Source of the DNA: Phascolarctobacterium sp. ET69
GTDB taxonomy: Bacteria; Bacillota; Negativicutes; Acidaminococcales; Acidaminococcaceae
DNA: 64,000 bases
Direction of reading: 5' to 3'
Assembly (NCBI RefSeq): GCF_023336935.1
Contig: NZ_JAMBLR010000003.1
Span: forward strand, 62,001-126,000
Below are positions 17,735 through 43,797 of the stretch, piece by piece. The notes below the pieces were generated by a model. The model was not told the DNA's origin, made no database searches, and saw only the letters and a list, made by a program, of their open reading frames with translations. Position 1 is the stretch's first letter, and each line of letters opens with the position of its first letter. The position numbers were made by a program, and so were the translations under genes.

Positions 17735-17985
17735 CAACAAAAACATAGCAGCAATTATGTAATGATTAAAGGCGAAGAACGGGAACAGGCTGTTAAAACC
17801 GGCAAAGAGAAGCGGCGGATGGTGCAAGCCGCAGCGGCAAAGCAGCAAAAGCTCGCCCGGGAGCCGCGCTTTTGAACGGAGTAGGAAGCGACGCAGAGCA
17901 GCGTTAAGCATAATGAAGCCCCAATCAGGGTGGTACCGCGGTTAATAATCGCCCCTGTCTGCATTAGTGCAGGCAGGGGTTTTTT
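17735..17985 (+). ncRNA. T-box leader, probably leucine-specific
   Basis: The invariant T-box AGGGTGGTACCGCG is at 17927-17940. Upstream are the GATGGTGCAAGCCG apical part of stem I, the specifier region AAAAG-CTC-GCCCGGGAGCC with CTC (Leu) at 17852-17854, and GAACGGAGTAGGAAGC of stem III. The terminator CCCCTGTCTGC/GCAGGCAGGGG with T6 is at 17952-17985. Uncharged tRNA(Leu) would stabilise the antiterminator and allow leuCDB expression. The specifier choice agrees with the downstream genes. Confidence 0.93.
17952..17985 (+). terminator. T-box terminator
   Basis: Eleven-base stem CCCCTGTCTGC/GCAGGCAGGGG with one G-U pair and six T residues; the regulated terminator of the leucine T-box. Confidence 0.9.
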
Positions 17986-18025
17986 ATTTAGCTTTATGGA
18001 GTAAAAAATACAGGAGGCAGTTATT

Positions 18026-19288
18026 ATGGGAATGACAATGACGGAGAAGATACTGGCAAAACACGCCGGACGCCCCGAAGTATCGGCAGGCGACCTGTTG
18101 GTATCGCAGGTGGATTTGGTGCTGGCTAACGATATTACAGGCCCGCCGGCAATTAATGAGTTCAAAAAAATCGGCAAACCGGTTTTTGACAAAAATAAAA
18201 TTGCGCTTGTGCCGGATCATTTTTCTCCCTGCAAGGATATTAAAGCGGCTACCATGTGCAAAACCATGCGTGATTTTGCGCGTGAAAACGAAATTAAAAA
18301 CTATTTTGAAGTTGGGCGCATGGGTATTGAGCATACCCTGCTGCCGGACAACGGGCTTGTTGCGCCGGGCGAAATTGTTATCGGCGCGGATTCGCACACC
18401 TGCACTTACGGTGCGGTAAACGCGCTTTCTACCGGCATGGGTTCTACGGATATCGGCTGCGCCATGGCAAGCGGCACCAGCTGGTTTAAAGTACCGGCTG
18501 CCATTAAGGTTGAACTTACCGGCAAGCTGCCGCGCTTTGTAAAAGGCAAGGACGTTATTTTAACTTTAATCGGCATGATTGGCGTTGACGGCGCGCGTTA
18601 CCAGTCGCTGGAATTCTGCGGCGACGGCGTGGCAGAACTGGAAATGGCAGACCGCTTTACCATTTGCAACATGGCGATTGAAGCAGGCGCCAAAAACGGC
18701 ATTTTCCCGGTGGACGAAAAAACAAAAGCTTACCTTAAAGGCCGTGTAGACCGCGACTGGCAGGGCGTTGAGGCTGACGCCGACGCAAACTATGTGCGCG
18801 AAATTAAAATTGAACTTGATAAACTTGTACCTGTTGTTGCTTATCCGCACCTGCCGGAAAATACGCACCCGGCAGCGGAAGGGCGCGATATTAAAATCGA
18901 CCAGGTTGTTGTGGGCAGCTGCACGAACGGACGCCTTGAAGATTTGGCGCAGGCTGCGGAAGTGCTGAAGGGACGCAAGGTTCATCCTTCCGTACGCTGC
19001 ATTATCATCCCTGCAACGCAGGAAATTTATAAAGAAGCCATGAAACTTGGCTATATTGATACCTTTATTGATGCCGGTGCGGCTGTTTCCACCCCGACCT
19101 GCGGGCCGTGCCTTGGTGGGTATATGGGCATTCTGGCTGCGGGCGAAAGGGCTGTTTCCACAACCAACCGCAACTTCCGCGGGCGTATGGGCCATGTAGA
19201 CAGCGAGGTTTACCTGGCAAGCCCGTACACGGCGGCTGCAAGCGCAGTAACCGGTTATATTACCAGCCCCGAGGAGGTAATGAAATGA
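18026..19288 (+). CDS. leuC: 3-isopropylmalate dehydratase large subunit
   Basis: A 420-residue aconitase-family protein that binds the [4Fe-4S] cluster and, with LeuD, isomerises 2- to 3-isopropylmalate in leucine synthesis. Cluster cysteines are seen in [18 protein letters not shown] and [11 protein letters not shown]. The length matches the shorter archaeal-type (HacA-like) LeuC common in anaerobic Bacillota, not the roughly 466-residue enterobacterial form. An AGGAGG site lies upstream, and its stop overlaps the leuD start (ATGA). Confidence 0.95.
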
Positions 19289-19776
19289 GTAAAGTTTGGC
19301 GTTATGGCGACCATGTAGATACGGATGTTATCATTCCGGCAAGATATTTGAACATCAGCGATTTTAACGAACTGGCAGAACATGCCATGGAAGATTCCAA
19401 AGAAAATTTAACCGTTAATTTTGCCGCTAACGTAAAGCCGGGCGACATTGTTGTGGCAGGCAAAAACTTCGGCTGCGGCTCCAGCCGCGAGCACGCGCCC
19501 ATTGTGCTGAAAGTTAAAGGCGTTAAGTGCATTATTGCCGACAGCTTCGCGCGTATTTTTTACCGCAATGCCATCAACATCGGCCTGCCGGTGCTGGAAA
19601 TTGGCACTGACGTGGAAAAAATTGAAGCCGGTGACGAGCTTGACGTGGATATGGCCAAAGGCGAAATTAAAATTGTTAATAAAAACATTACCATTAAAAC
19701 AAAACCGCTGCCGGAATTTATTCAGAAAATTGCCGACTGCGGCGGGCTGATTAACTACCTTAAAGGAGAACAATAA
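19285..19776 (+). CDS. leuD: 3-isopropylmalate dehydratase small subunit
   Basis: A 163-residue swivel-domain subunit. The substrate-binding motif [12 protein letters not shown] and the N-terminal [16 protein letters not shown] are characteristic. The start at 19285 overlaps the leuC stop by four bases, with GAGGAGG upstream; the open frame extends further upstream but only as an overlap with leuC. Translational coupling would give the equal amounts needed for the LeuCD complex. Confidence 0.96.
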
Positions 19777-19777
19777 T

Positions 19778-20848
19778 ATGAAGATAACTTTACTGCCGGG
19801 CGACGGTATCGGCGTGGAAATTGTTGACGCTGCCGTTGAAGTACTGGACGCAGCGGCTAAAAAATATAACTTTACCGTTGAATACGATAAAAAACTGATT
19901 GGCGGTGCGGCTATTGACGCTTTCGGCACGCCGCTGCCGGAAGAAACTCTGGCAAGTGCCAAAGCAAGCGACGCAGTGCTTTTGGGTGCGGTAGGCGGCC
20001 CGAAATGGGATAATGTTGACCCTTCCATCCGCCCGGAAAAAGGCCTGTTAAACATCCGCAAAGGGCTGGGGCTGTACTGCAACCTGCGCCCGATGAAGGT
20101 TTCCAAATATACGGCGCATCTCAGCCCGCTTAAAACCGAACGTGCCGAAGGTGCTGACCTTTTAATTGTACGCGAACTGACCGGCGGTATTTACTTTGGC
20201 ACGCATAACGAAGCACATCTTAACGCCGACGGCGTGGAAGAAGCAAGCGACATTGAAATGTACACCCGCCCGGAAGTAGAGCGCATTGCCCGCTTTGCCT
20301 TTGAAGCGGCTCGCAAACGCGGCGGCAAGGTAACAAGCGTTGATAAAGCCAACGTGCTGGGCAGCAGCCGTATGTGGCGCAAAATTGTTACCGAAATGCG
20401 CGACAAGGAATACACCGACGTTGAACTGAACCATTTTTATGTAGATAACTGCGCCATGCAGCTGGTGCTGAACCCGAAACAGTTTGACGTTGTTTTAACC
20501 AATAACATTTTCGGTGATATTTTAAGTGACGAAGCAAGCACCATTGCAGGCAGCATCGGTTTACTGCCGAGTGCAAGCCTAGGCGACGGAGCAGGCATGT
20601 ATGAGCCTATCCACGGCAGTGCGCCTGATATTGCGGGGCAGGGCATTGCCAACCCGCTGGCTACCATTTTAAGCGTTGCCATGATGCTGCGCTATTCGCT
20701 GAACCAGGACGTAGCGGCAGACGCAGTTGAACGCGCCGTTGACGAAGTGCTGGAAGCAGGCTACCGCACGCCTGACCTGTGGGCGGAAGGCCTGAAGAAA
20801 GTAAGCACTGCCGAAATGGGCAAGCTTGTAGCGGAAGCAGTAAAATAA
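19778..20848 (+). CDS. leuB: 3-isopropylmalate dehydrogenase
   Basis: A 356-residue NAD-dependent beta-decarboxylating dehydrogenase for the third step of leucine synthesis. Evident are LLPGDGIGVEIV at the N-terminus, the substrate-binding RKGLGLYCNLRPMKV, VRELTGGIYFG, the metal-binding NIFGDILSDEASTIAGSIGLLPSASLG and the NAD-binding EPIHGSAPDIAGQGIANPLA. It follows leuD after one base with GGAGAA just ahead. Confidence 0.97.
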   Translation: MKITLLPGDGIGVEIVDAAVEVLDAAAKKYNFTVEYDKKLIGGAAIDAFGTPLPEETLASAKASDAVLLGAVGGPKWDNVDPSIRPEKGLLNIRKGLGLYCNLRPMKVSKYTAHLSPLKTERAEGADLLIVRELTGGIYFGTHNEAHLNADGVEEASDIEMYTRPEVERIARFAFEAARKRGGKVTSVDKANVLGSSRMWRKIVTEMRDKEYTDVELNHFYVDNCAMQLVLNPKQFDVVLTNNIFGDILSDEASTIAGSIGLLPSASLGDGAGMYEPIHGSAPDIAGQGIANPLATILSVAMMLRYSLNQDVAADAVERAVDEVLEAGYRTPDLWAEGLKKVSTAEMGKLVAEAVK

Positions 20849-20916
20849 AGCAGCCGTAAAATAAGGGAAACACAGATAAATTAGAGATATTATAAACAGT
20901 TATAAATAAGGGAAAG

Positions 20917-20952
20917 AAAAAGGGCGCAGACCGTATGGGTTGCGCCTTTTAA
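20917..20952 (+). terminator. leuCDB terminator
   Basis: AAAGGGCGCA (20919-20928) pairs with TGCGCCTTTT (20941-20950) with one G-U pair. Confidence 0.65.
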
Positions 20953-20959
20953 ACTGATG

Positions 20960-21092
20960 TTGCCAAAAAATTTTTAATGTGCTATACTTACATCAATCTG
21001 TTTAACGCCGGTTAAGCAGGTGCCTTTATTTATGTATCGCAGGCCTTAGAAGATACATAAATAAGGGCATTTTTTGTTTTAACCGCATTTTT
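20960..21092 (+). repeat. left copy of a 133-bp direct repeat (orphan leader)
   Basis: Identical to 26988-27120 except A21055 for G27083. It carries a promoter (TTGCCA, 17 bp, TATACT at 20983-20988), a small hairpin CTGTTTAAC/GGTTAAGCAG, a long terminator stem GCCTTTATTTATGTATC/GATACATAAATAAGGGC with T6, and a GTTTTAACCGC tail. No gene follows it in its own direction: the next ORF is on the opposite strand. It marks the left end of the AT-rich island. Confidence 0.93.
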
Positions 21093-21214
21093 GATAACAG
21101 ACGTCTATCAAAATATGTGAAGAAAGATGTTCAGTCATTTTCTTTGATGAGAGTAATTTGTTATATTCTACATAACAATCGTTTGACAACACTTTTTTTG
21201 TAAACAACAAAGAA

Positions 21215-21883
21215 TTATATAAACAAATATGTTAATTTATCGCAATAAATTTTATATGATTCATCGAACGAAATTTTTATACAAGTTATTTTTCCACCTA
21301 AGCTTGTAACTTCAGCTAATAATTGACCTGCTTTTTTTGTTGTATCAAATATTATTTTCTCAATTTGAGGTGCGAACGCTACTATAAAATATTCGGCTTG
21401 ATATCCTTTGGACAATAATGAGCAAATGCTTTGTAACTGGTTGATTGCTCTTTGACTTTTCATATTTGGTATCAACAAAACTTTATCTTCTGTAATTATA
21501 CTTTTTACTTCAACTATTGTTTTAGATGTATTTGAATAAAAATCGCACTTGTAATTATCAATAACTTGCTCTGGATAAAATAAATCTTTATATTCAGCTA
21601 AGTGTGCTTTTACAATATGATTTGCAAATCCTGTATCAACAATAAAATAATCTTTGTTGTTTCGAACCGCAAATAAAGTATATTTTAATCGTTTAGCTGC
21701 TTTGGTTGACGCTCTTATCAAAATATCTTTGTTATTCAAAGATATTAATTTACTAAGTTTGCACGTAATCGGAACATAACACTCAAAAACATCATCGTTA
21801 TATGAAATATTGCAAATGAATCTGCTTTTTCCTTCTGATATAAATACGGCTTTATATAGTTTGAAATCTATAATATTAAGCAT
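21215..21883 (-). CDS. SfsA-like protein with PD-(D/E)XK-type motif
   Basis: About 222 residues, recognisably but distantly related to SfsA (sugar fermentation stimulation protein): the ECYVPITCKLSKLI, KLKYTLFAV, YFIVDTGFANHIV and KSQRAINQLQSICSLLSKGYQ segments follow the SfsA order. SfsA has a nuclease-like fold, and here Asp114 and Glu125-x-Lys127 (IVEVKS) fit a PD-(D/E)XK site. Inside an R-M island it may act as a nuclease or repair factor (inference). ATG 21883 with AGAGGT is preferred to the TTG at 21904. It is divergent from the XRE gene. Confidence 0.65.
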   Translation of the reverse strand: MLNIIDFKLYKAVFISEGKSRFICNISYNDDVFECYVPITCKLSKLISLNNKDILIRASTKAAKRLKYTLFAVRNNKDYFIVDTGFANHIVKAHLAEYKDLFYPEQVIDNYKCDFYSNTSKTIVEVKSIITEDKVLLIPNMKSQRAINQLQSICSLLSKGYQAEYFIVAFAPQIEKIIFDTTKKAGQLLAEVTSLGGKITCIKISFDESYKIYCDKLTYLFI

Positions 21884-21887
21884 ATAA

Positions 21888-22012
21888 TCTACCTCTTGAT
21901 TCAAATTGTATCATAAAAATATATAATAATCAATCTCGAGCAACCGATAGCATGGAATAATTTTCCCTTAAATCATAAAAATATTGCATACTATCGAATT
22001 TAATGGTATAAT
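21888..22012. promoter_or_regulatory. divergent promoters with XRE operator candidate
   Basis: Plus strand: TTGCAT (21984-21989), 17 bp, TATAAT (22007-22012) for the XRE gene. Minus strand: TTGATT and TACAAT with 17 bp for the SfsA-like gene. The inverted repeat CGATAGCATG (21945-21954) and CATACTATCG (21987-21996) has one mismatch in ten, and its right arm overlaps the plus-strand -35 region, as expected for a controller (C-protein-like) site. Confidence 0.6.
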
Positions 22013-22045
22013 TTAATTGCTGTATTTGAAAGCGAGGTATCTGTT

Positions 22046-22252
22046 ATGGCTGTTTCGTACAATAAACTATGGAAACTTCTTATTGATAAGAATATGAAAA
22101 AAATGGAATTGAAAAAAGCTGCAGGTATTGGTTCTACAACTTTGTCAAAACTAAGCAAAAATCAGCCTGTGTCAATGGAAGTCATGATTAAACTGTGTGG
22201 TGTCTTGGGGTGTAATATTGGAGACATTATGGATGTTATTGAAAATAACTAG
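22046..22252 (+). CDS. small XRE-family regulator (possible R-M controller)
   Basis: A 68-residue protein that is almost only a Cro/C1-type helix-turn-helix: YNKLWKLLIDKNMKKMELKKAAGIGSTTLSKLSKNQPVSMEVMIKLCGVLGCNIGDIMDV. Such small regulators often control R-M genes and act as timing devices. It lies 15 bp before the first methyltransferase gene and has a dyad in its own promoter. GCGAGGT precedes ATG 22046. Confidence 0.88.
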   Translation: MAVSYNKLWKLLIDKNMKKMELKKAAGIGSTTLSKLSKNQPVSMEVMIKLCGVLGCNIGDIMDVIENN

Positions 22253-22267
22253 AAAGGAGAGTTTGTT

Positions 22268-23680
22268 ATGAGTCTTGCTCAAAACGCTTACATAGATGCT
22301 TCTAATGTATATGAAAACTCTCTTGAAAACAGTTATAAAAAAGTTAATGGAGTTTTTTATACAGACCTATCACTTGCCGAAAAAATGTTAACAGAACTGA
22401 AACTTCCAAAAGATACAATAATAATGGATCCTTGCTGTGGATCAGGAGTTTTTCTTTATGCCGCTAAAAAACATGGCTTTATCAATCTTTTTGGTGCAGA
22501 CAAAGATAAAAATGCTATCAAATTTTGCTTGAATAATATTAACAATGTTTCTTTTATCGTCTGCGATTCTATTGGCCAAACAGCTTCTACTCTGTTGAGT
22601 GAATTTGAAGAGATTAATCAACCTGATGTTGTTATAGGTAATCCACCTTATGTTCCTTTGTCTGGTGATATTGAATTAAACTGTGATTATCTTTTTAGAC
22701 GTAGAGTGTCTGATTTCGGTAACAATTTGTTTGTAGCAGCATTAGTACGAGCTTTTGAAATCGTAAAAACTAATGGTATTGTATCTTATATAATTCCAAA
22801 AAACTTTTTGCATGTTGCTGGATATAGCCTATTGCGGAGAACAATTCTTGAAGAAAAAACTATTGTTTCTATAATAGATATTGGAGCTTATTTCAAGAAT
22901 GTTCGAGGAGAGCAAATTATTCTTACAGTAAAAAATTGTGTAGCAGATAGAAAGCATAAAATCAAGTTGAAAAAGTTATCAAGTAATCGTTTTGTAACTA
23001 TGTGCAATATTCCTCAATCGTTTTACAAAGATGAAATACTAATTTTTAATTGTTCAGAAGATTATTCAACTTATAAAAAACTAATTTCCTCATATCAAAC
23101 ATTAGCCGATTTATGTAATGGTTATGTAGGTAGAGGAAAATCTGTTTCAACAGATGCGATAGCAGGGAAAGAAATACGTAAATTTGGATATAAAAATCAT
23201 ACTGTTCCCACAACTGGTAATAAGCTTTTCATCCAAAATATTTATAGTGCAGAAGCTGGTATAATAGCTGCTTTTGGCGGTAATATGGAAGCAACACAGA
23301 CGGTTACTGTATTCACAGATGGTGACGAGAAAATGTGTCGTTACATATTGGGCATACTTCATTCACGGTTGTGTAATTTTTTCTTGTACAAATACTGTTA
23401 TAATTACTCTAAACTTACAATGCATACAGATGCAAAATACTTAAAGAAAATACCACTTCCGTCAACTAATCAACAAGAAATATATTTTGATTCTATACTC
23501 AGCTTAGTTAGCAGATTAGAAAGCAATGATTATATGAGTCAAGAATGGTTCGACTGTTTAGAAGAATTAAATCAGATAGTATACAAAGCATACGGTATTA
23601 ATAAAAAAGAATCTGATTATATTGATTGTGAAGTAAAAAGAATTCAGTCTAAAAGGTGGATATCCGATGGTCAATTCTAA
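22268..23680 (+). CDS. N6-adenine DNA methyltransferase (TaqI/Eco57I-like)
   Basis: A 470-residue DNA methyltransferase. The AdoMet-binding motif I is DPCCGSGVFLYAA (from residue 54) and the catalytic motif IV is NPPY (125-128), in the order of gamma-class adenine methyltransferases. The C-terminal half (about 250-470) would be the target-recognition domain. AGAAAGGAG precedes ATG 22268. Its last 14 bases overlap the next methyltransferase gene, so both are coexpressed. Target sequence unknown. Confidence 0.9.
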   Translation: MSLAQNAYIDASNVYENSLENSYKKVNGVFYTDLSLAEKMLTELKLPKDTIIMDPCCGSGVFLYAAKKHGFINLFGADKDKNAIKFCLNNINNVSFIVCDSIGQTASTLLSEFEEINQPDVVIGNPPYVPLSGDIELNCDYLFRRRVSDFGNNLFVAALVRAFEIVKTNGIVSYIIPKNFLHVAGYSLLRRTILEEKTIVSIIDIGAYFKNVRGEQIILTVKNCVADRKHKIKLKKLSSNRFVTMCNIPQSFYKDEILIFNCSEDYSTYKKLISSYQTLADLCNGYVGRGKSVSTDAIAGKEIRKFGYKNHTVPTTGNKLFIQNIYSAEAGIIAAFGGNMEATQTVTVFTDGDEKMCRYILGILHSRLCNFFLYKYCYNYSKLTMHTDAKYLKKIPLPSTNQQEIYFDSILSLVSRLESNDYMSQEWFDCLEELNQIVYKAYGINKKESDYIDCEVKRIQSKRWISDGQF

Positions 23681-24440
23681 AAAATGCAATGATCTTACTG
23701 GAAAAGAGTGGCTTCAAAATTCTTTTAGCATTTGGCGAGATTTATCCAAAACAAAAGAAGAAAAAGATTTTAAGCATCCAGCATCTTATCCGGTTTCGTT
23801 ATGCGAAAAACTAATACGTACTTTTTCAAAAGCAAATTCGTGTGTATTAGATCCTTTTAATGGTATTGGCTCTACAACTGTAGCTGCACAAAAGCTTGGA
23901 TGTGAGGCTGTAGGGATTGATTTATCTGATGCTTTTTGTAATATAGCAAAACAACGTGTGGGAAAAGATGATAAAATTCAGATAATTAATGGTGATAGTT
24001 TTGAAGTGTTAAAAATGCTTCCTGCAAATCACTTTGATATTTGTGTCACATCTCCACCATATTGGGATATTCTCAATATGAAACGCAGCGCTGACCAAAA
24101 AGAGGCTATAAATTACTCTGATAAGACTAATGATATTGGAAATATTGCAAATTATAATGAATTTGTAAATACGTTATCAAACCTTTTTGTTTCAGTTAAT
24201 AGAGTTTTGAAAAAAGGTGGTTATTGTATTGTAAATGTAATGGATATTCGCAAAAAAAGCAATTTTTATCCTTTGCATAGTGATTTAGCTACAGCATTAC
24301 AAAAGGTCGGATTTATTTACGATGATCTAATTATTTGGGATAGACAAGCAGATTACAATAATATGCGTCCGCTAGGATATCCATACAAATTTCGTATCAA
24401 CAAGGTTCACGAATACCTTTTGATATTTATCAAGGAGTAG
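23667..24440 (+). CDS. second DNA methyltransferase (TSPPY type)
   Basis: A 257-residue methyltransferase with motif I LDPFNGIGSTTVAAQKLGCEAVGID (from residue 61) followed by TSPPYWDIL (128-136). SPPY is usual for N4-cytosine and some N6-adenine enzymes. Motif I preceding motif IV is the permuted order relative to beta-class enzymes. The N-terminal WLQNSFSIWRDL and KHPASYPVSLCEKLI segments are typical of R-M-linked members. A pair of methyltransferases suggests an asymmetric target modified strand by strand. Confidence 0.88.
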   Translation: MVNSKKCNDLTGKEWLQNSFSIWRDLSKTKEEKDFKHPASYPVSLCEKLIRTFSKANSCVLDPFNGIGSTTVAAQKLGCEAVGIDLSDAFCNIAKQRVGKDDKIQIINGDSFEVLKMLPANHFDICVTSPPYWDILNMKRSADQKEAINYSDKTNDIGNIANYNEFVNTLSNLFVSVNRVLKKGGYCIVNVMDIRKKSNFYPLHSDLATALQKVGFIYDDLIIWDRQADYNNMRPLGYPYKFRINKVHEYLLIFIKE

Positions 24441-24445
24441 ATGTT

Positions 24446-24901
24446 ATGACGTTGTTAAGTTCAAGGGCTTCAGATATTAATGTATCAATAGCCGAACTTT
24501 GCTTGATACTTGGATATATGAGCACTCCTGGAAGGGTAGGTTTGATTGAGGCGCAAATTCCAGAAGAGAAAGCATTTATGTTTGAACGAGAATTTCCAGG
24601 GGAGCCTTATTATCCAATAACTCAAGGTGAAACTACCGGTGGCAATATAATGAAACAAGGTTGTCAACTACGTATATATTTTTTAAACACAAGGAATTGT
24701 CCGATAATTCTATTACCACATCTTAAGGCTGGAGTTGGTAATTATGTAAATAGAATTAATCGAGGAAAATTTATTGAACGAATAGTTAAAAATTATGGTT
24801 TTTGTTTTGGTGAACATCAAAATGCTGCAACAATACGTGCCATTGTAGCACGTTTGCACCCTACAAACGTTGTAGATTTCGATCGTGGTTATAATTTGTA
24901 A
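24446..24901 (+). CDS. unknown protein of the R-M island (151 aa)
   Basis: I do not recognise this protein. It follows the second methyltransferase after five bases, with AAGGAG upstream of ATG 24446, so it is translated with it. No signal peptide or membrane segment is seen. Notable are the segments LCLILGYMSTPGRVGLIEAQIPEE, PYYPITQGETTGGN and GFCFGEHQNAATIRAIVARLHP; several charged residues could form a catalytic site, but no classical nuclease motif is evident. By position it is a candidate restriction subunit or accessory factor. Confidence 0.7.
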   Translation: MTLLSSRASDINVSIAELCLILGYMSTPGRVGLIEAQIPEEKAFMFEREFPGEPYYPITQGETTGGNIMKQGCQLRIYFLNTRNCPIILLPHLKAGVGNYVNRINRGKFIERIVKNYGFCFGEHQNAATIRAIVARLHPTNVVDFDRGYNL

Positions 24902-25233
24902 TTGATTAATTTACAATAGAAAGAATTTGAATTTTCTATATCATATTAAGCACAAAGGTGGATAATTCTTTGTAGAATCAAGGCGAGAAACAATAATCAT
25001 ATTTATTAATGACATGTGCCGCTATTACAATTGAGTTTGCTGGAATAATTGTATTGCAAAAAATGCTAATTTAAATTATATTTTGGAGTTCCTTCTTTTC
25101 AGTCTTCTAACATAGCTCAATTGTCCGAAAGAAGTAAAGTATAAAAGACCGATTGTTTGTGTTTTCTAAATAATAAATAATAATGTTTATTTTATTGGTA
25201 AAAAATAAGAATAAAATAAAAGGTTGTGATTGT
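24902..25233. other. AT-rich gap inside the island
   Basis: No supportable gene. Short open stretches are interrupted by stops in all frames. The segment before 25233 contains AT-rich promoter-like sequence and the AAGGTTGTG ribosome binding site of the next gene. The gap separates the methyltransferase unit from the nuclease unit, so the latter may have its own promoter. Confidence 0.5.
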
Positions 25234-26121
25234 ATGAATCGAGAAATGTCTTATCTTTTAGGTATGATTTGTGGCAATGGAGAAGTAAGACGTGGTGTAT
25301 CAGAAACCACCATATCTATTGAAATTCCACACAAAAAACTGGCAACAGAAAATAATAACGATGTTAGAATATATGTACGTGCAAGTATAACCGATATTCG
25401 CACAGTATTAGAACCATTAATTGGTACAGGATTAAACTTTACTCAGCAGGATAATTATTCTATTATTTCTTTTACTAAAAAAAATGATGAATATATGATG
25501 AGAGAGATTTTACGTTATATTGACAATGCTGTATCTCATGAAAATATAAGAATTGATGAAGAAGTGTTTTCTTTTACTCGTGATGAAAAAATTTCTTTTT
25601 TACAAGGCTTTGCTGATGTTACAGGTTATATTCGTAGAAGCAACTATTTCTTTAAAACCTATATGCATCGAGTTTACTTAGAGGTACCACATAATTGGTA
25701 CTTGGTAAGTGATATTTGTCGTTTACTTAAAGATGTCAATATTCCTGTACAAGCAATAGATTGGGCTCATCCTAATATGCGTGACGGAAATCTTGTTAAA
25801 TACGAAGAAGGAAAATCTGACTTTTGGAAAAAGGAACATCAAATTAAAATATGGGCAAATGAATTTTTGCCCATAGGATTTGCTGTTTTACACAAAAGAG
25901 AAGCTCTTGCTCAGTTTGCAACAGAATTAGTTGATGGTATTCAATCAGAGGGTAAAATCCCCAAAGAAGTAACTCACAAATTCTATTGGGATGGTCGAGA
26001 AAGAATTAGAATCAAACCACATCATCCATGTGAAAATGATGAATTTATTCCATTAGAAATTAGGGGAAAACACTATGATTCGTGGAAGCAGATAGCTAAA
26101 GATTTAGGATACGGAGAATAA
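25234..26121 (+). CDS. LAGLIDADG-like DNA-binding protein, catalytic acids substituted
   Basis: A 295-residue protein with two segments matching LAGLIDADG helices: YLLGMICGNGE (7-17) and FLQGFADVTGYI (122-133), about 115 residues apart as in a single-chain double-motif homing endonuclease. Aligned to LAGLIDADG, the catalytic eighth-position Asp is Asn in the first and Thr in the second, so canonical cleavage looks lost. DNA recognition by the fold may remain. It is translated four bases ahead of a PD-(D/E)XK nuclease gene. ATG 25234 is chosen over an upstream start by its ribosome binding site. Confidence 0.65.
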   Translation: MNREMSYLLGMICGNGEVRRGVSETTISIEIPHKKLATENNNDVRIYVRASITDIRTVLEPLIGTGLNFTQQDNYSIISFTKKNDEYMMREILRYIDNAVSHENIRIDEEVFSFTRDEKISFLQGFADVTGYIRRSNYFFKTYMHRVYLEVPHNWYLVSDICRLLKDVNIPVQAIDWAHPNMRDGNLVKYEEGKSDFWKKEHQIKIWANEFLPIGFAVLHKREALAQFATELVDGIQSEGKIPKEVTHKFYWDGRERIRIKPHHPCENDEFIPLEIRGKHYDSWKQIAKDLGYGE

Positions 26122-26125
26122 TGTT

Positions 26126-26605
26126 ATGAGGGAATTTGACTTATATCCACCAATGCAATTATGGCTTAAAACATATCTGAAGAATAAATACAAATCTGCT
26201 GATGAAATAATTGTCGTGGACGCACATAGTGAACGGTTGGACAGAGTTCTTAGAAAGTATAATATAATTCAAGAGGAAGCTATCGGTGTAGATATTCAAA
26301 TTGATGTTCTCGGCATTGTAAAGAACGCAGATAAGTTCAAACTATTTTTTATTGAAGCAAAAAAGACAAGTTTAACTTTACGTGATTTAGGCCAACTGTG
26401 GGCGTATTGCAAACTGATTGATCCGGAAGAAGCATTTTTAATGACTTCTGCGAACTTGGGATCATTAAATAAACTTTTCAATGTTTACAAAAGGGATGAT
26501 TTACTTGATTTTGGTGATGGTAAACGTATTAAAAAGATGAAAATAGCTATTTGGAATATGCAAACCAATGCACCGGATTTTGCAAGTATGATTCCCAAAA
26601 TTTAA
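26126..26605 (+). CDS. PD-(D/E)XK nuclease-fold protein
   Basis: A 159-residue protein whose core reads VDIQIDVLGIV then KLFFIEAKKTSLTLRDLGQLWAYC. Asp60 and Glu77-Ala-Lys79 form a PD-(D/E)XK site, and the following Gln/Trp helix is usual in restriction-type nucleases of this fold. It follows the LAGLIDADG-like gene after four bases. I infer that it is the cutting subunit of a two-gene restriction enzyme, with the partner providing DNA recognition. Confidence 0.72.
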   Translation: MREFDLYPPMQLWLKTYLKNKYKSADEIIVVDAHSERLDRVLRKYNIIQEEAIGVDIQIDVLGIVKNADKFKLFFIEAKKTSLTLRDLGQLWAYCKLIDPEEAFLMTSANLGSLNKLFNVYKRDDLLDFGDGKRIKKMKIAIWNMQTNAPDFASMIPKI

Positions 26606-26987
26606 TTATTAAATAAAAATGCAGAGATGGTTTTACTGTATCATTTCATGAATTATTGGAATATCACAAAATTATATATAATTTTATTAACCGTGTTGAT
26701 TCTGTCGTGGTTTTCAAGTACTCTTTTAAAAGAATGAAATTTTGAGTTTTTCATTAATCTGTTATAACGATTGATATATTAGTGTTATATTCTTTTATGT
26801 ATTATTTGTAATTTATCAATATTAGTAATATTACCAGATAAAGTACGGTTTATCAACAAATTTGTATTAAATATTTTCTGTTTATATGTTATACCCATTT
26901 GTTCAAATACTTTTTTACAATTTTAAACCGTTGTGCGCAAACTATTTGGTTTATACTTTGTTAGATATTTAATTTCAGATACGTTGT
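26606..26987. other. AT-rich non-coding right end of the island
   Basis: No convincing gene. A stretch of about 44 open codons on the minus strand (roughly 26795-26930) has no ribosome binding site and is not recognisable; it may be gene debris. The right-hand copy of the 133-bp repeat starts at 26988. Confidence 0.5.
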
Positions 26988-27120
26988 TTGCCAAAAAATT
27001 TTTAATGTGCTATACTTACATCAATCTGTTTAACGCCGGTTAAGCAGGTGCCTTTATTTATGTATCGCAGGCCTTAGAAGATGCATAAATAAGGGCATTT
27101 TTTGTTTTAACCGCATTTTT
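26988..27120 (+). repeat. right copy of the 133-bp direct repeat: attenuator leader of the SMR gene
   Basis: Promoter TTGCCA (26988-26993), 17 bp, TATACT (27011-27016), then a structured leader: hairpin CTGTTTAAC/GGTTAAGCAG, terminator GCCTTTATTTATGTATC/GATGCATAAATAAGGGC (27050-27096) with T6 (27098-27103), and a tail whose TTAACCG (27107-27113) can pair with CGGTTAA (27037-27043). AAGGAGG of the SMR gene begins one base after the repeat. This is a transcription attenuator and a candidate riboswitch; because the gene encodes a guanidinium-type exporter, guanidine is the natural ligand to test. I could not match it to guanidine-I, -II or -III consensus. Confidence 0.75.
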
Positions 27121-27137
27121 AAGGAGGTTTTTAATTC

Positions 27138-27458
27138 ATGGCATGGTTAGATTTATTTATAGCGGGTATTTTTGAGGTTGTATGGTCTACCTGCTTAAAG
27201 TACTCGCACGGATTTACCAATGTAATGTTTACGGTTTTAACATTTATCGGCATGGGTTTCAGTTTCTGGTTTCTGGCGCACGCGGTTAAATCGCTGCCGA
27301 TGGGCACGGCTTATGCCATCTGGACTGGCATTGGCGCGCTGGGAGCCGTTATAGTGGGCGTTATTTTGTTTAAGGAACCGGTTACGCTGGTGCGTTTATT
27401 TTTTGTGGCAATGCTTTTAACAGGCATTATCGGCTTAAAATTAACATCCGGTCAGTAA
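27138..27458 (+). CDS. SugE/Gdx-type SMR exporter (guanidinium)
   Basis: A 106-residue, four-helix small multidrug resistance protein of the inner membrane, working as an antiparallel dimer. The first helix GIFEVVWSTCLKYS (Glu13, Trp16) and the later AYAIWTGIGALGAV match SugE/Gdx guanidinium/proton antiporters rather than EmrE-like polyspecific pumps. AAGGAGG lies 10 bases before ATG 27138. It is preceded by the attenuator leader, a copy of which lies 6 kb upstream beyond the island. Confidence 0.9.
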   Translation: MAWLDLFIAGIFEVVWSTCLKYSHGFTNVMFTVLTFIGMGFSFWFLAHAVKSLPMGTAYAIWTGIGALGAVIVGVILFKEPVTLVRLFFVAMLLTGIIGLKLTSGQ

Positions 27459-41991: not shown

Positions 41992-43797
41992 ATGTCGCAA
42001 TATCAGGTAAATAATACGTCTATTCAAGATTTATTATCGTGGATTCGCTGTGGAGAAGTAGCAATTCCAGAAATACAACGTCCTTTTGTATGGGATGCAA
42101 CTAAAGTTCGTGATTTAATAGATTCGTTATATGCAGGTTTTCCGGTAGGCTATATTATTATTTGGAAAAATCCAGATATTAAATTGAAAGATGGTAGCAT
42201 TTCTCTAGGTAAAAAAATTTTAATTGATGGACAGCAACGTATAACCGCTTTGCAGGCTGCAATTGTAGGTTCTCCTGTTGTGACTAGCAATTATAAAAAG
42301 AAACGTATAAAAATTGCATTTAATCCAATGACAGAATGTTTTGAAGTATCGAACCCGGCTATTGAAAAAAATAATGCGTGGATATCTGATATTTCTGAAT
42401 TATATCAAGTTGGTTTTGATTCATTTAATTTTGTTATTAATTATTGTAAAAGTAATAATTTAAATGCTGATAATGAACGAAGTAAAATAAATTCTATAAT
42501 TACTAAATTACAGCAAATTCAAAATAATAATATTGGAGTTATAGAATTATCTCATCAACTTGATATAACGCAGGTAACAGAAATTTTCATACGTATAAAT
42601 TCTAAAGGAGTTGTATTATCTCAATCTGATTTTGCTATGTCTAAAATATCTGCTGATGAAAATTTTGGAGGTAATGATATTAGAAAAATTATTGATTATT
42701 TTTGTCATTTAATGCAAAAACCTGAAGATTTAGGCATCATTCAGGAAAATGATAGTGATTTTGTAAAATCAGAATATTTTTCTAAAATAAAATGGATTGT
42801 TAAAGAAAATGAAGATATATTTATGCCTGACTATACTGATGTGCTAAGGGTTGCATTTACGTTTAAATTTTTACGCGGGCGTATATCTGATTTGGTGAGT
42901 TTATTATCAGGACGTGATTTTGCGACCAGAGAATATCAGGAGAGTATTGCAGAAGAATCATTTAATAATTTAAAAGAAGGAGTATTGGAGTTTGTAAATC
43001 AAACTAATTTTCAAAGATATTTAATGATTGTAAAATCCATAGGAATAATATCTCCGGCTTTAATTCGTTCTCAAAATGTACTTAATTTTGGATATGCCCT
43101 TTATCTTTTATTAAAAAATAAAAATACTGATTCTGCGATAATAGAGAAAATTGTTAGAAGATGGATATTACTCTGTATTTTAACAGGAAGATATTCTGGA
43201 TCACCTGAGTCAATGTTTGATTATGATATTAAGCGTTTTTATAATAGTGATCCGATAAGTATTTTAGAACGTACTGAAGCAGGTGAATTATCAGATGCAT
43301 TTTGGAATAATATACTGATTACAAAATTAGAAACTTCAGTGGCAAGCAGTCCTATGTTTCATGTATTTTTGATGACGCAGATCAGAAATAAAGATAAAGG
43401 ATTTTTATCGGAAGAAATAGATGTACAATCTCTAATTGAACAGCGTGGTGATATTCATCATATATTCCCCAAAAAATATTTACAAAAAAATGGTATTAAT
43501 GAGCGTGGACGTTATAATCAAATTGCTAATTATGTTTATACCCAATCTGAAATTAATATCAAGATAAAAGACCAAGCACCTAAAGAATATATGAATAAGG
43601 TTAAAGAACAGTGTGAAGGGAAAAATAATGGTTATGGGGGAATAGATTCAATGAAAGAATTACAAAAAAATCTTAATGATAATTGCATACCGGAAGAAAT
43701 TTTCAATATGGATTATTCTAATTATGATGAATTTTTAAATAAACGTAGAATTATGATGGCTGAAAAAATAAAAAAATTTTATAATTCATTTAAATAA
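41992..43797 (+). CDS. GmrSD-like DUF262/HNH restriction protein
   Basis: A 601-residue protein with an N-terminal DUF262 domain (AIPEIQRPFVWD and ILIDGQQRITAL at 76-87, the ParB/Srx-like nucleotide-binding motif) and a C-terminal HNH-type nuclease core: DIHHIFPKKYL (from 487), followed by conserved Asn residues and DQAPKEYM. This is the architecture of type IV GmrSD-like enzymes that attack modified DNA, and of related anti-phage proteins. Its AT-rich composition differs from the genes on both sides, indicating acquisition. GAAAGGA precedes ATG 41992. Confidence 0.88.
   Translation: MSQYQVNNTSIQDLLSWIRCGEVAIPEIQRPFVWDATKVRDLIDSLYAGFPVGYIIIWKNPDIKLKDGSISLGKKILIDGQQRITALQAAIVGSPVVTSNYKKKRIKIAFNPMTECFEVSNPAIEKNNAWISDISELYQVGFDSFNFVINYCKSNNLNADNERSKINSIITKLQQIQNNNIGVIELSHQLDITQVTEIFIRINSKGVVLSQSDFAMSKISADENFGGNDIRKIIDYFCHLMQKPEDLGIIQENDSDFVKSEYFSKIKWIVKENEDIFMPDYTDVLRVAFTFKFLRGRISDLVSLLSGRDFATREYQESIAEESFNNLKEGVLEFVNQTNFQRYLMIVKSIGIISPALIRSQNVLNFGYALYLLLKNKNTDSAIIEKIVRRWILLCILTGRYSGSPESMFDYDIKRFYNSDPISILERTEAGELSDAFWNNILITKLETSVASSPMFHVFLMTQIRNKDKGFLSEEIDVQSLIEQRGDIHHIFPKKYLQKNGINERGRYNQIANYVYTQSEINIKIKDQAPKEYMNKVKEQCEGKNNGYGGIDSMKELQKNLNDNCIPEEIFNMDYSNYDEFLNKRRIMMAEKIKKFYNSFK

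What the first reader, a model, noticed from the sequence alone, without database searches (positions are those of the whole stretch)
20960..27120. 133-bp direct repeat of an exporter leader brackets an AT-rich R-M island
Positions 20960-21092 and 26988-27120 are identical in 132 of 133 bases and consist of the promoter, attenuator and tail of the SMR leader, ending one base before the gene's ribosome binding site. The left copy is an orphan with no gene downstream. Between them lie about 5.9 kb of foreign-looking DNA with no recombinase. The likely history is capture of the island by recombination at a duplicated leader, with the functional copy kept on the exporter side. Regulatory leaders used as a repeat boundary for defence DNA would be an unusual integration mode.
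Basis: partly seen in the sequence, partly recalled or inferred. Interest (0 to 1): 0.85.

Follow-up and report, generated by a model that had tools for sequence, protein, structure and literature searches.

The report
Restriction-island insertion duplicating a riboswitch leader
A 5.9-kb block of foreign DNA-defence genes has inserted in front of a guanidine-exporter gene and left a second copy of that gene's promoter and RNA switch behind, a way of inserting already described for restriction-modification genes, so the event is a new example of a known kind with unusual cargo.

Summary
Window 20960-21092 and 26988-27120 match at 132 of 133 bases and are the only two copies in the genome. Five congeners have one copy each and no island; in three of them leuB-leader-exporter is contiguous. 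The window is therefore an insertion that duplicated 133 bp of its target. This matches 'insertion with long target duplication' of R-M genes, reported with duplications of about 100 bp (passages in PMC3874152, PMC1643837).

The leader is a guanidine-IV-like riboswitch of a Gdx/SugE exporter. The duplicated segment runs from the first base of the -35 box to just before the ribosome binding site, so the exporter keeps a complete unit.

The leader is the target, not part of the element. The same cassette (84% DNA identity) lies in a mobilizable element of Merdimmobilis, relatives lie on plasmids, and 24 of 25 relatives with 1 kb on both sides lack such a repeat (the other is an apparently circular contig).

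Mechanism is unresolved: homology-assisted integration of a circular or linear donor is my preference. The cargo may be the more novel part: two methyltransferases with a LAGLIDADG-fold protein lacking its catalytic acids, paired with a PD-(D/E)XK protein.

The parts
20960..21092 (+). Left, orphan copy of the 133-bp target duplication (promoter, guanidine-IV-like leader, terminator)
26988..27120 (+). Right copy, in front of the exporter gene; one base differs (G at 27083)
20960..20988 (+). Promoter-like TTGCCA-17-TATACT; its first base is the first base of the repeat
   Evidence: a consensus match only
20998..21073 (+). Two hairpins of the leader (left copy); the second is followed by a T run
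27026..27101 (+). Two hairpins of the leader (right copy)
21093..26987 (.). Inserted AT-rich island, 5,895 bp, 30.4% GC; 21115-26877 is 84% identical to the cassette of Merdimmobilis hominis An559 (L018)
21215..21904 (-). SfsA-like protein (optional member of the cassette)
   Evidence: PF03749 42.8 bits; found in 11 of 61 related loci
22046..22252 (+). Small HTH regulator (HTH_26), possible controller
   Evidence: found in 7 of 61 related loci
22268..23680 (+). M1: N6-adenine DNA methyltransferase, Eco57I/TaqI-like, with NPPY
23667..24440 (+). M2: N6_N4 DNA methyltransferase, with SPPYW
24446..24901 (+). U5: protein of unknown family, optional in the cassette
   Evidence: no Pfam, PADLOC or NCBIfam match; 18 of 61 related loci
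25225..26121 (+). LAG: LAGLIDADG-fold protein lacking acids at both catalytic positions
   Evidence: model pLDDT 90.0, best Z 14.9 to PI-SceI; N18 and T133, never D or E in 38 sequences
26126..26605 (+). PD: PD-(D/E)XK nuclease-like protein, D60...E77-x-K79
   Evidence: model pLDDT 96.1
26659..26916 (-). Decayed TnpV pseudogene (internal gap and a stop)
   Evidence: tblastn; TnpV identity of the L018 gene
27138..27458 (+). SMR exporter, Gdx/SugE type
   Evidence: PF00893; best PDB-sequence match 6wk5, E 3.1e-39; SugE model 117.6 bits, cut-off 126
19778..20848 (+). leuB, left chromosomal flank
   Evidence: PF00180 469.7 bits; name recalled from the leu operon order

Best explanation
A 5.9-kb restriction-modification cassette inserted in the short gap between leuB and a Gdx/SugE exporter gene, and the insertion duplicated 133 bp of the target. 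Shown: the single-copy empty site in congeners, the exact duplication with no loss of flanking bases, the foreign cassette, its relatives on mobile DNA. The duplicated part is the exporter's whole 5' control unit (promoter, guanidine-IV-like leader, terminator), so the right copy keeps the exporter regulated and the left copy is an orphan. Inferred: the likely route is homology-assisted integration, either one crossover between a circular molecule that already carried a leader copy and the chromosomal leader, or, from a linear donor, a homologous joint on the exporter side and an illegitimate joint at the end of the recipient's leader. Selection for exporter expression would favour an event that leaves a complete leader on the right. 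The repeat should also allow loop-out back to the empty site, or amplification. The confidence given is for the insertion with target duplication; for the homology-assisted route alone I would say 0.5.
For: Five of five other congener genomes have one leader copy and none has the island. In G001, G002 and G005 leuB, leader and exporter are contiguous. Window left flank plus leader plus right flank, joined, matches G005 at 932 of 953 positions without a gap. The left copy differs from G005 at 1 of 133 positions, the right copy at 2. The island is 84% identical over about 5.8 kb to a cassette in a Merdimmobilis element with serine recombinase, relaxase and TnpV, and the window still holds a decayed TnpV. 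Long duplications of about 100 bp at R-M insertions are described. In E. coli, single crossovers of a circular plasmid gave duplications of 109-950 bp (passage in PMC3240628). The flank from about 18.0 to 27.44 kb is mostly 95-99% identical to G005, against 78-92% just beyond it and 86-88% in a distant region, so this locus has recently been exchanged between species by homologous recombination.
Against: No intermediate (circle, or island without the duplication) was found, so the route is inferred. No relative of the cassette was seen to carry this leader. The A/G difference between copies fits every route. No strain of the same species was available, and most relatives are draft genomes. No reads were available to exclude an assembly fault at the repeat.
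Confidence: 0.85

Rival explanations
1. The leader was first duplicated in tandem, and the island later entered between the two copies without duplicating anything.
For: It gives the same final structure; nothing in the window excludes it.
Against: It needs two events; none of five congeners has two leaders. The copies differ by one base only, so both events would have to be recent.
Confidence: 0.08
2. The island is a site-specific element that recognises the leader, or whose attachment site is the 133 bp.
For: Exact repeat at both ends; related cassettes ride on elements with recombinases.
Against: No recombinase among the genes tested between the copies; no terminal inverted repeat beyond chance (best 12 of 16 matches, reached in 47 of 200 shuffles); of 25 related cassettes with 1 kb on both sides, none has such a repeat apart from one apparently circular contig.
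Confidence: 0.04
3. The duplicated structure, or the empty site, is an assembly artefact.
For: Draft genomes; a 133-bp repeat can mislead short-read assembly.
Against: The two copies differ by a base; the island lies inside a 357-kb contig; the empty site is seen in three separate congeners; the LAG gene is missing from all five.
Confidence: 0.03

Closest known systems
Insertion with long target duplication of R-M genes (Nobusato et al. 2000, Helicobacter pylori; Furuta et al. 2010)
   Same: R-M genes inserted relative to a relative's empty site, flanked by a direct repeat of about 100 bp that is single in the empty site, no transposase.
   Different: Here the duplicated target is a complete promoter-riboswitch-terminator unit, outside Helicobacter. 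The two primary papers were not read; known here from passages that cite them.
Single-crossover integration of a circular plasmid with target duplication (E. coli, PMC3240628)
   Same: One homologous joint duplicates a target stretch of 109-950 bp.
   Different: There the plasmid carried a cloned homologous fragment; here no donor with a leader is known.
Guanidine-IV (mepA, GGAM-1) riboswitch
   Same: Two hairpins with complementary loops, terminator in the second, in front of sugE; the model built here also finds copies before an SMR gene and a MATE-type gene in other families.
   Different: No Rfam match; ligand untested; one copy here is an orphan.
Tn4451-like mobilizable elements (name recalled)
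   Same: The nearest relative of the island sits in an element with a serine recombinase with DUF4368, relaxase and TnpV.
   Different: The window keeps only the R-M cargo and a broken TnpV.

Membership tests
Insertion with long target duplication | Empty site in a relative with a single copy of the repeated sequence | tested here: met
Insertion with long target duplication | Direct repeat of the order of 100 bp at both ends of the insert | tested here: met
   133 bp, 132 identical
Insertion with long target duplication | R-M genes in the insert | tested here: met
   two DNA methyltransferases, nuclease-like proteins
Insertion with long target duplication | No transposase or terminal inverted repeats that would explain a classical transposition | tested here: met
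   only a decayed TnpV
Guanidine-IV riboswitch | Two hairpins, complementary conserved loops (GCC / GGC) | tested here: met
   all 28 pairs keep standard pairing in at least 6 of 7 sequences, 4 pairs with changes on both sides; loops conserved in other families
Guanidine-IV riboswitch | 3' hairpin is a terminator, gene downstream is sugE or a MATE exporter | tested here: met
Guanidine-IV riboswitch | Match to the published consensus or an Rfam model | tested here: inconclusive
   no Rfam match; I do not know whether Rfam 15 holds this class; the published alignment was not at hand
Guanidine-IV riboswitch | Guanidine binding and guanidine-dependent read-through | not testable with these tools
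   needs an experiment
Type II R-M system | DNA methyltransferase with intact motifs | tested here: met
   dN/dS 0.066 and 0.067 against L018
Type II R-M system | Cognate restriction endonuclease | tested here: inconclusive
   LAG and PD are the conserved partners (53 of 56 LAG hits followed by PD); activity untested
LAGLIDADG homing endonuclease | LAGLIDADG fold | tested here: met
   Z 14.9, rmsd 3.5, 189 residues to 1vde_A
LAGLIDADG homing endonuclease | Acidic catalytic residue at the end of each LAGLIDADG motif | tested here: not met
   N/K/R/S and T/A/G in 38 of 38 sequences; which position is catalytic is recalled
Mobilizable transposon with serine recombinase | Recombinase and relaxase present | tested here: not met
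   absent among the window island's genes, present in L018

The most novel reading that the evidence does not exclude
The island carries a new architecture of restriction enzyme. A LAGLIDADG-fold protein that has lost both catalytic acids serves as the DNA-reading subunit, and a small PD-(D/E)XK protein encoded directly after it cuts. This LAG-PD pair is kept while the methyltransferases are exchanged: two separate enzymes here, an EcoRI-type N6 methylase fused to a C5 methylase on a Lactiplantibacillus plasmid and a Lachnospiraceae phage. The pair moves across phyla on plasmids, phages and mobilizable elements, and here entered by target duplication that preserved a guanidine-exporter switch.
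Probability: 0.5. Interest if true: 0.75.

Novelty: new member of a known kind. Interest (0 to 1): 0.45.

Why it matters
It is a clean case, with empty sites in relatives, of an R-M cassette entering a genome with a long duplication of its target, a mode that the passages read here describe mainly from Helicobacter and without a proven mechanism. The duplicated target is a complete, self-contained switch. That shows how such an event can spare the neighbouring gene, and it leaves an orphan guanidine switch pointing at the island. The cargo, a LAGLIDADG-fold protein paired with a PD-(D/E)XK protein, is a testable candidate for an undescribed kind of restriction enzyme.

Tried and rejected
Rfam on the window and, at loose thresholds, on both leader copies: only a T-box elsewhere; no riboswitch match to the leader. 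Profile searches of LAG and PD against PDB sequences gave nothing usable; only the fold searches did. For PD the Foldseek hits are weak (best E 0.012) and the best Z is 9.0, so the fold call rests on these plus the conserved D...ExK. Terminal inverted repeats at the island ends: none beyond chance. Flanking direct repeats around related cassettes: of 25 with 1 kb on both sides, 6 gave any at E <= 1e-3; five are 19-67 bp (the longest only 76% identical) and not treated as meaningful, one is the end overlap of an apparently circular contig (L038). A chance origin of the repeat is rejected. Papers: search listings; passages only in PMC7736828, PMC11611296, PMC9788692, PMC3031569, PMC1643837, PMC3874152, PMC4978471, PMC11997821, PMC3240628, PMC2749054, PMC3154945. 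The two primary papers on long target duplication were not read: the 2010 paper is not held, the 2000 paper was not looked up. That no paper describes a LAGLIDADG restriction subunit rests only (9 and 11 papers listed, passages read in one). The name of the organism was not established.
Full report
Observation. The two 133-bp copies are at the stated coordinates and differ at one base, A at 21055 and G at 27083. A search of the whole genome finds these two and no other. The repeat begins on the first base of TTGCCA of a promoter-like TTGCCA-17-TATACT and ends directly before AAGGAGG. The fold is a small hairpin and a long hairpin followed by a T run (z-score -4.2 against shuffles). The A/G difference falls in the long hairpin and keeps pairing as a wobble.

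What the leader is. The gene behind the right copy is an SMR exporter of the Gdx/SugE type: best PDB-sequence match 6wk5 with E 3.1e-39 (that this entry is Gdx-Clo is recalled), SugE model 117.6 bits against a cut-off of 126. Leaders from five congeners share both hairpins, with 4 of 28 pairs changed on both sides, and conserved loops that hold GCC and GGC. A covariance model of the leader, searched in 299 genomes of the phylum sample, matched 5, own genome included. Of the four others, one match lies before an SMR gene, one before a MATE-type exporter and one before a gene that looks like pyruvate phosphate dikinase (gene names by eye); the fourth is weak (28.7 bits) and its first hairpin fits poorly. 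This agrees with the described guanidine-IV class: two hairpins joined by a pseudoknot, terminator in the 3' hairpin, sugE as commonest gene (passages read). Rfam gave no match, so membership stays a strong inference.

History of the locus. The genus sample holds five other genomes; each has one match to leader plus exporter. In G005, G001 and G002 leuB, leader and exporter are contiguous. In G003 and G004 a gene of about 520-530 codons for a membrane-anchored binding-protein-like product lies between leuB and the single leader (domains of the G004 copy). Joining the window's left flank and leader to its right flank reproduces the G005 empty site at 932 of 953 positions without a gap. None of the other 58 genomes of the family sample has the LAG gene (1 of 59, own included). 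The ancestral state is therefore one leader and no island, and the insertion duplicated 133 bp without losing a base of the flanks.

The flanks are mosaic. From about 18.0 to 27.44 kb the window is mostly 95-99% identical to G005, then 78-92%. Another part of the window is 86-88% identical to all congeners, G005 included, and G001 reaches 95-100% over 19.2-20.4 kb. This stretch has thus been exchanged recently between species, which makes homologous recombination a natural agent here. The genome has a ComEC-type gene, but 10 of 14 control genomes do too, so this says little.

The cargo. The island holds an SfsA-like protein, a small HTH protein, two DNA methyltransferases (M1, M2), an unknown protein (U5), LAG and PD. 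One scan of public genomes with M2 gave 61 loci from many phyla. All four core genes are found in 40 of 61, and 38 have them on one strand in the order M1-M2-LAG-PD. The nearest, L018 of Merdimmobilis hominis, is 84% identical in DNA over about 5.8 kb. There the cassette lies beside a serine recombinase, ParB, relaxase, NikA-like protein and TnpV. The window retains a broken TnpV, so its island probably descends from such an element. L038 is a contig whose ends overlap by 4,975 bp, consistent with a circular molecule of about 9.9 kb, with a Mob_Pre relaxase and a Toprim/DUF927 protein. LAG relatives also occur on two Lactiplantibacillus plasmids and two phages. dN/dS against L018 is 0.07-0.08 for M1, M2, LAG and PD (Nei-Gojobori, codons aligned by protein), so the core genes are under purifying selection.

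LAG and PD. A model of LAG (pLDDT 90.0) has the LAGLIDADG fold: best Z 14.9, rmsd 3.5 over 189 residues to PI-SceI. The residues at the catalytic position of the two motifs are N18 and T133; across 38 sequences they are N/K/R/S and T/A/G, never acidic (the catalytic position is recalled). PD (pLDDT 96.1) has D60 in 42 of 42 and E77 and K79 each in 40 of 42 sequences; its structural matches are restriction and repair nucleases among others (best Z 9.0). A PD gene directly follows 53 of 56 LAG hits in 69 loci. On the plasmid L092 and the phage L093 the partner methyltransferase is instead an EcoRI-type methylase fused to a C5 methylase, and PD relatives follow LAG there too. This suggests that LAG and PD together are the restriction part. 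Most of the 69 loci were collected by their M2 gene, so the co-occurrence with M2 is biased; the LAG-PD pairing is not.

Mechanism. The leader is not a feature of the element. Of 25 related cassettes with at least 1 kb on both sides, 6 have any flanking direct repeat at E <= 1e-3: one is the end overlap of an apparently circular contig, the other five are 19-67 bp. Long and variable target duplications of the order of 100 bp are described for R-M insertions (PMC3874152). An E. coli study found duplications of 109-950 bp from single crossovers of a circular plasmid (PMC3240628). My preferred reading is homology-assisted integration, by a circle or by one homologous and one illegitimate joint. 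The exact start of the repeat at the -35 box may be partly chance, but an insertion in this leader without such a duplication would have cut the exporter off from its promoter, so selection can explain why a complete copy is seen on the right. The left copy may still make short RNAs, and read-through with guanidine would run antisense into the SfsA-like gene; this is speculation.

Verdict. The event is a new member of a known kind. The cargo may deserve separate study.

Noticed in passing
window 25225-26605; L092 4429-5806; L093 2751-4110: LAG (LAGLIDADG fold, no catalytic acids) is followed by PD (PD-(D/E)XK-like) in 53 of 56 hits in 69 loci, with different methyltransferase partners; a candidate split restriction enzyme.
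   Followed up: partly
window 41992-43797: Second AT-rich island of about 2 kb with a GmrSD-like gene (GmrSD_N 112.2 bits); no long direct repeat around it.
   Followed up: partly
window 18000-27440: Recombinant tract: mostly 95-99% identical to congener G005, whereas regions outside are 78-92%.
   Followed up: yes
L010 4817-6379; L013 4991-6589: Two congeners have a gene of about 520-530 codons for a membrane-anchored binding-protein-like product in the same leuB-leader gap, without leader duplication: a recurrent insertion or loss site.
   Followed up: partly
L038: Cassette on a contig with 4,975-bp overlapping ends, apparently a circular molecule of about 9.9 kb with a Mob_Pre relaxase, binned as Saccharibacteria.
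   Followed up: partly
L080 1501-1578 (minus strand): Guanidine-IV-like leader before what looks by eye like a pyruvate phosphate dikinase gene, an unexpected target gene.
   Followed up: no
window 17766-17959: T-box leader (101.1 bits) upstream of the leu genes.
   Followed up: no
L018 9235-9594; window 24902-25182: A 119-codon gene between U5 and LAG in L018 has no open counterpart in the window.
   Followed up: partly
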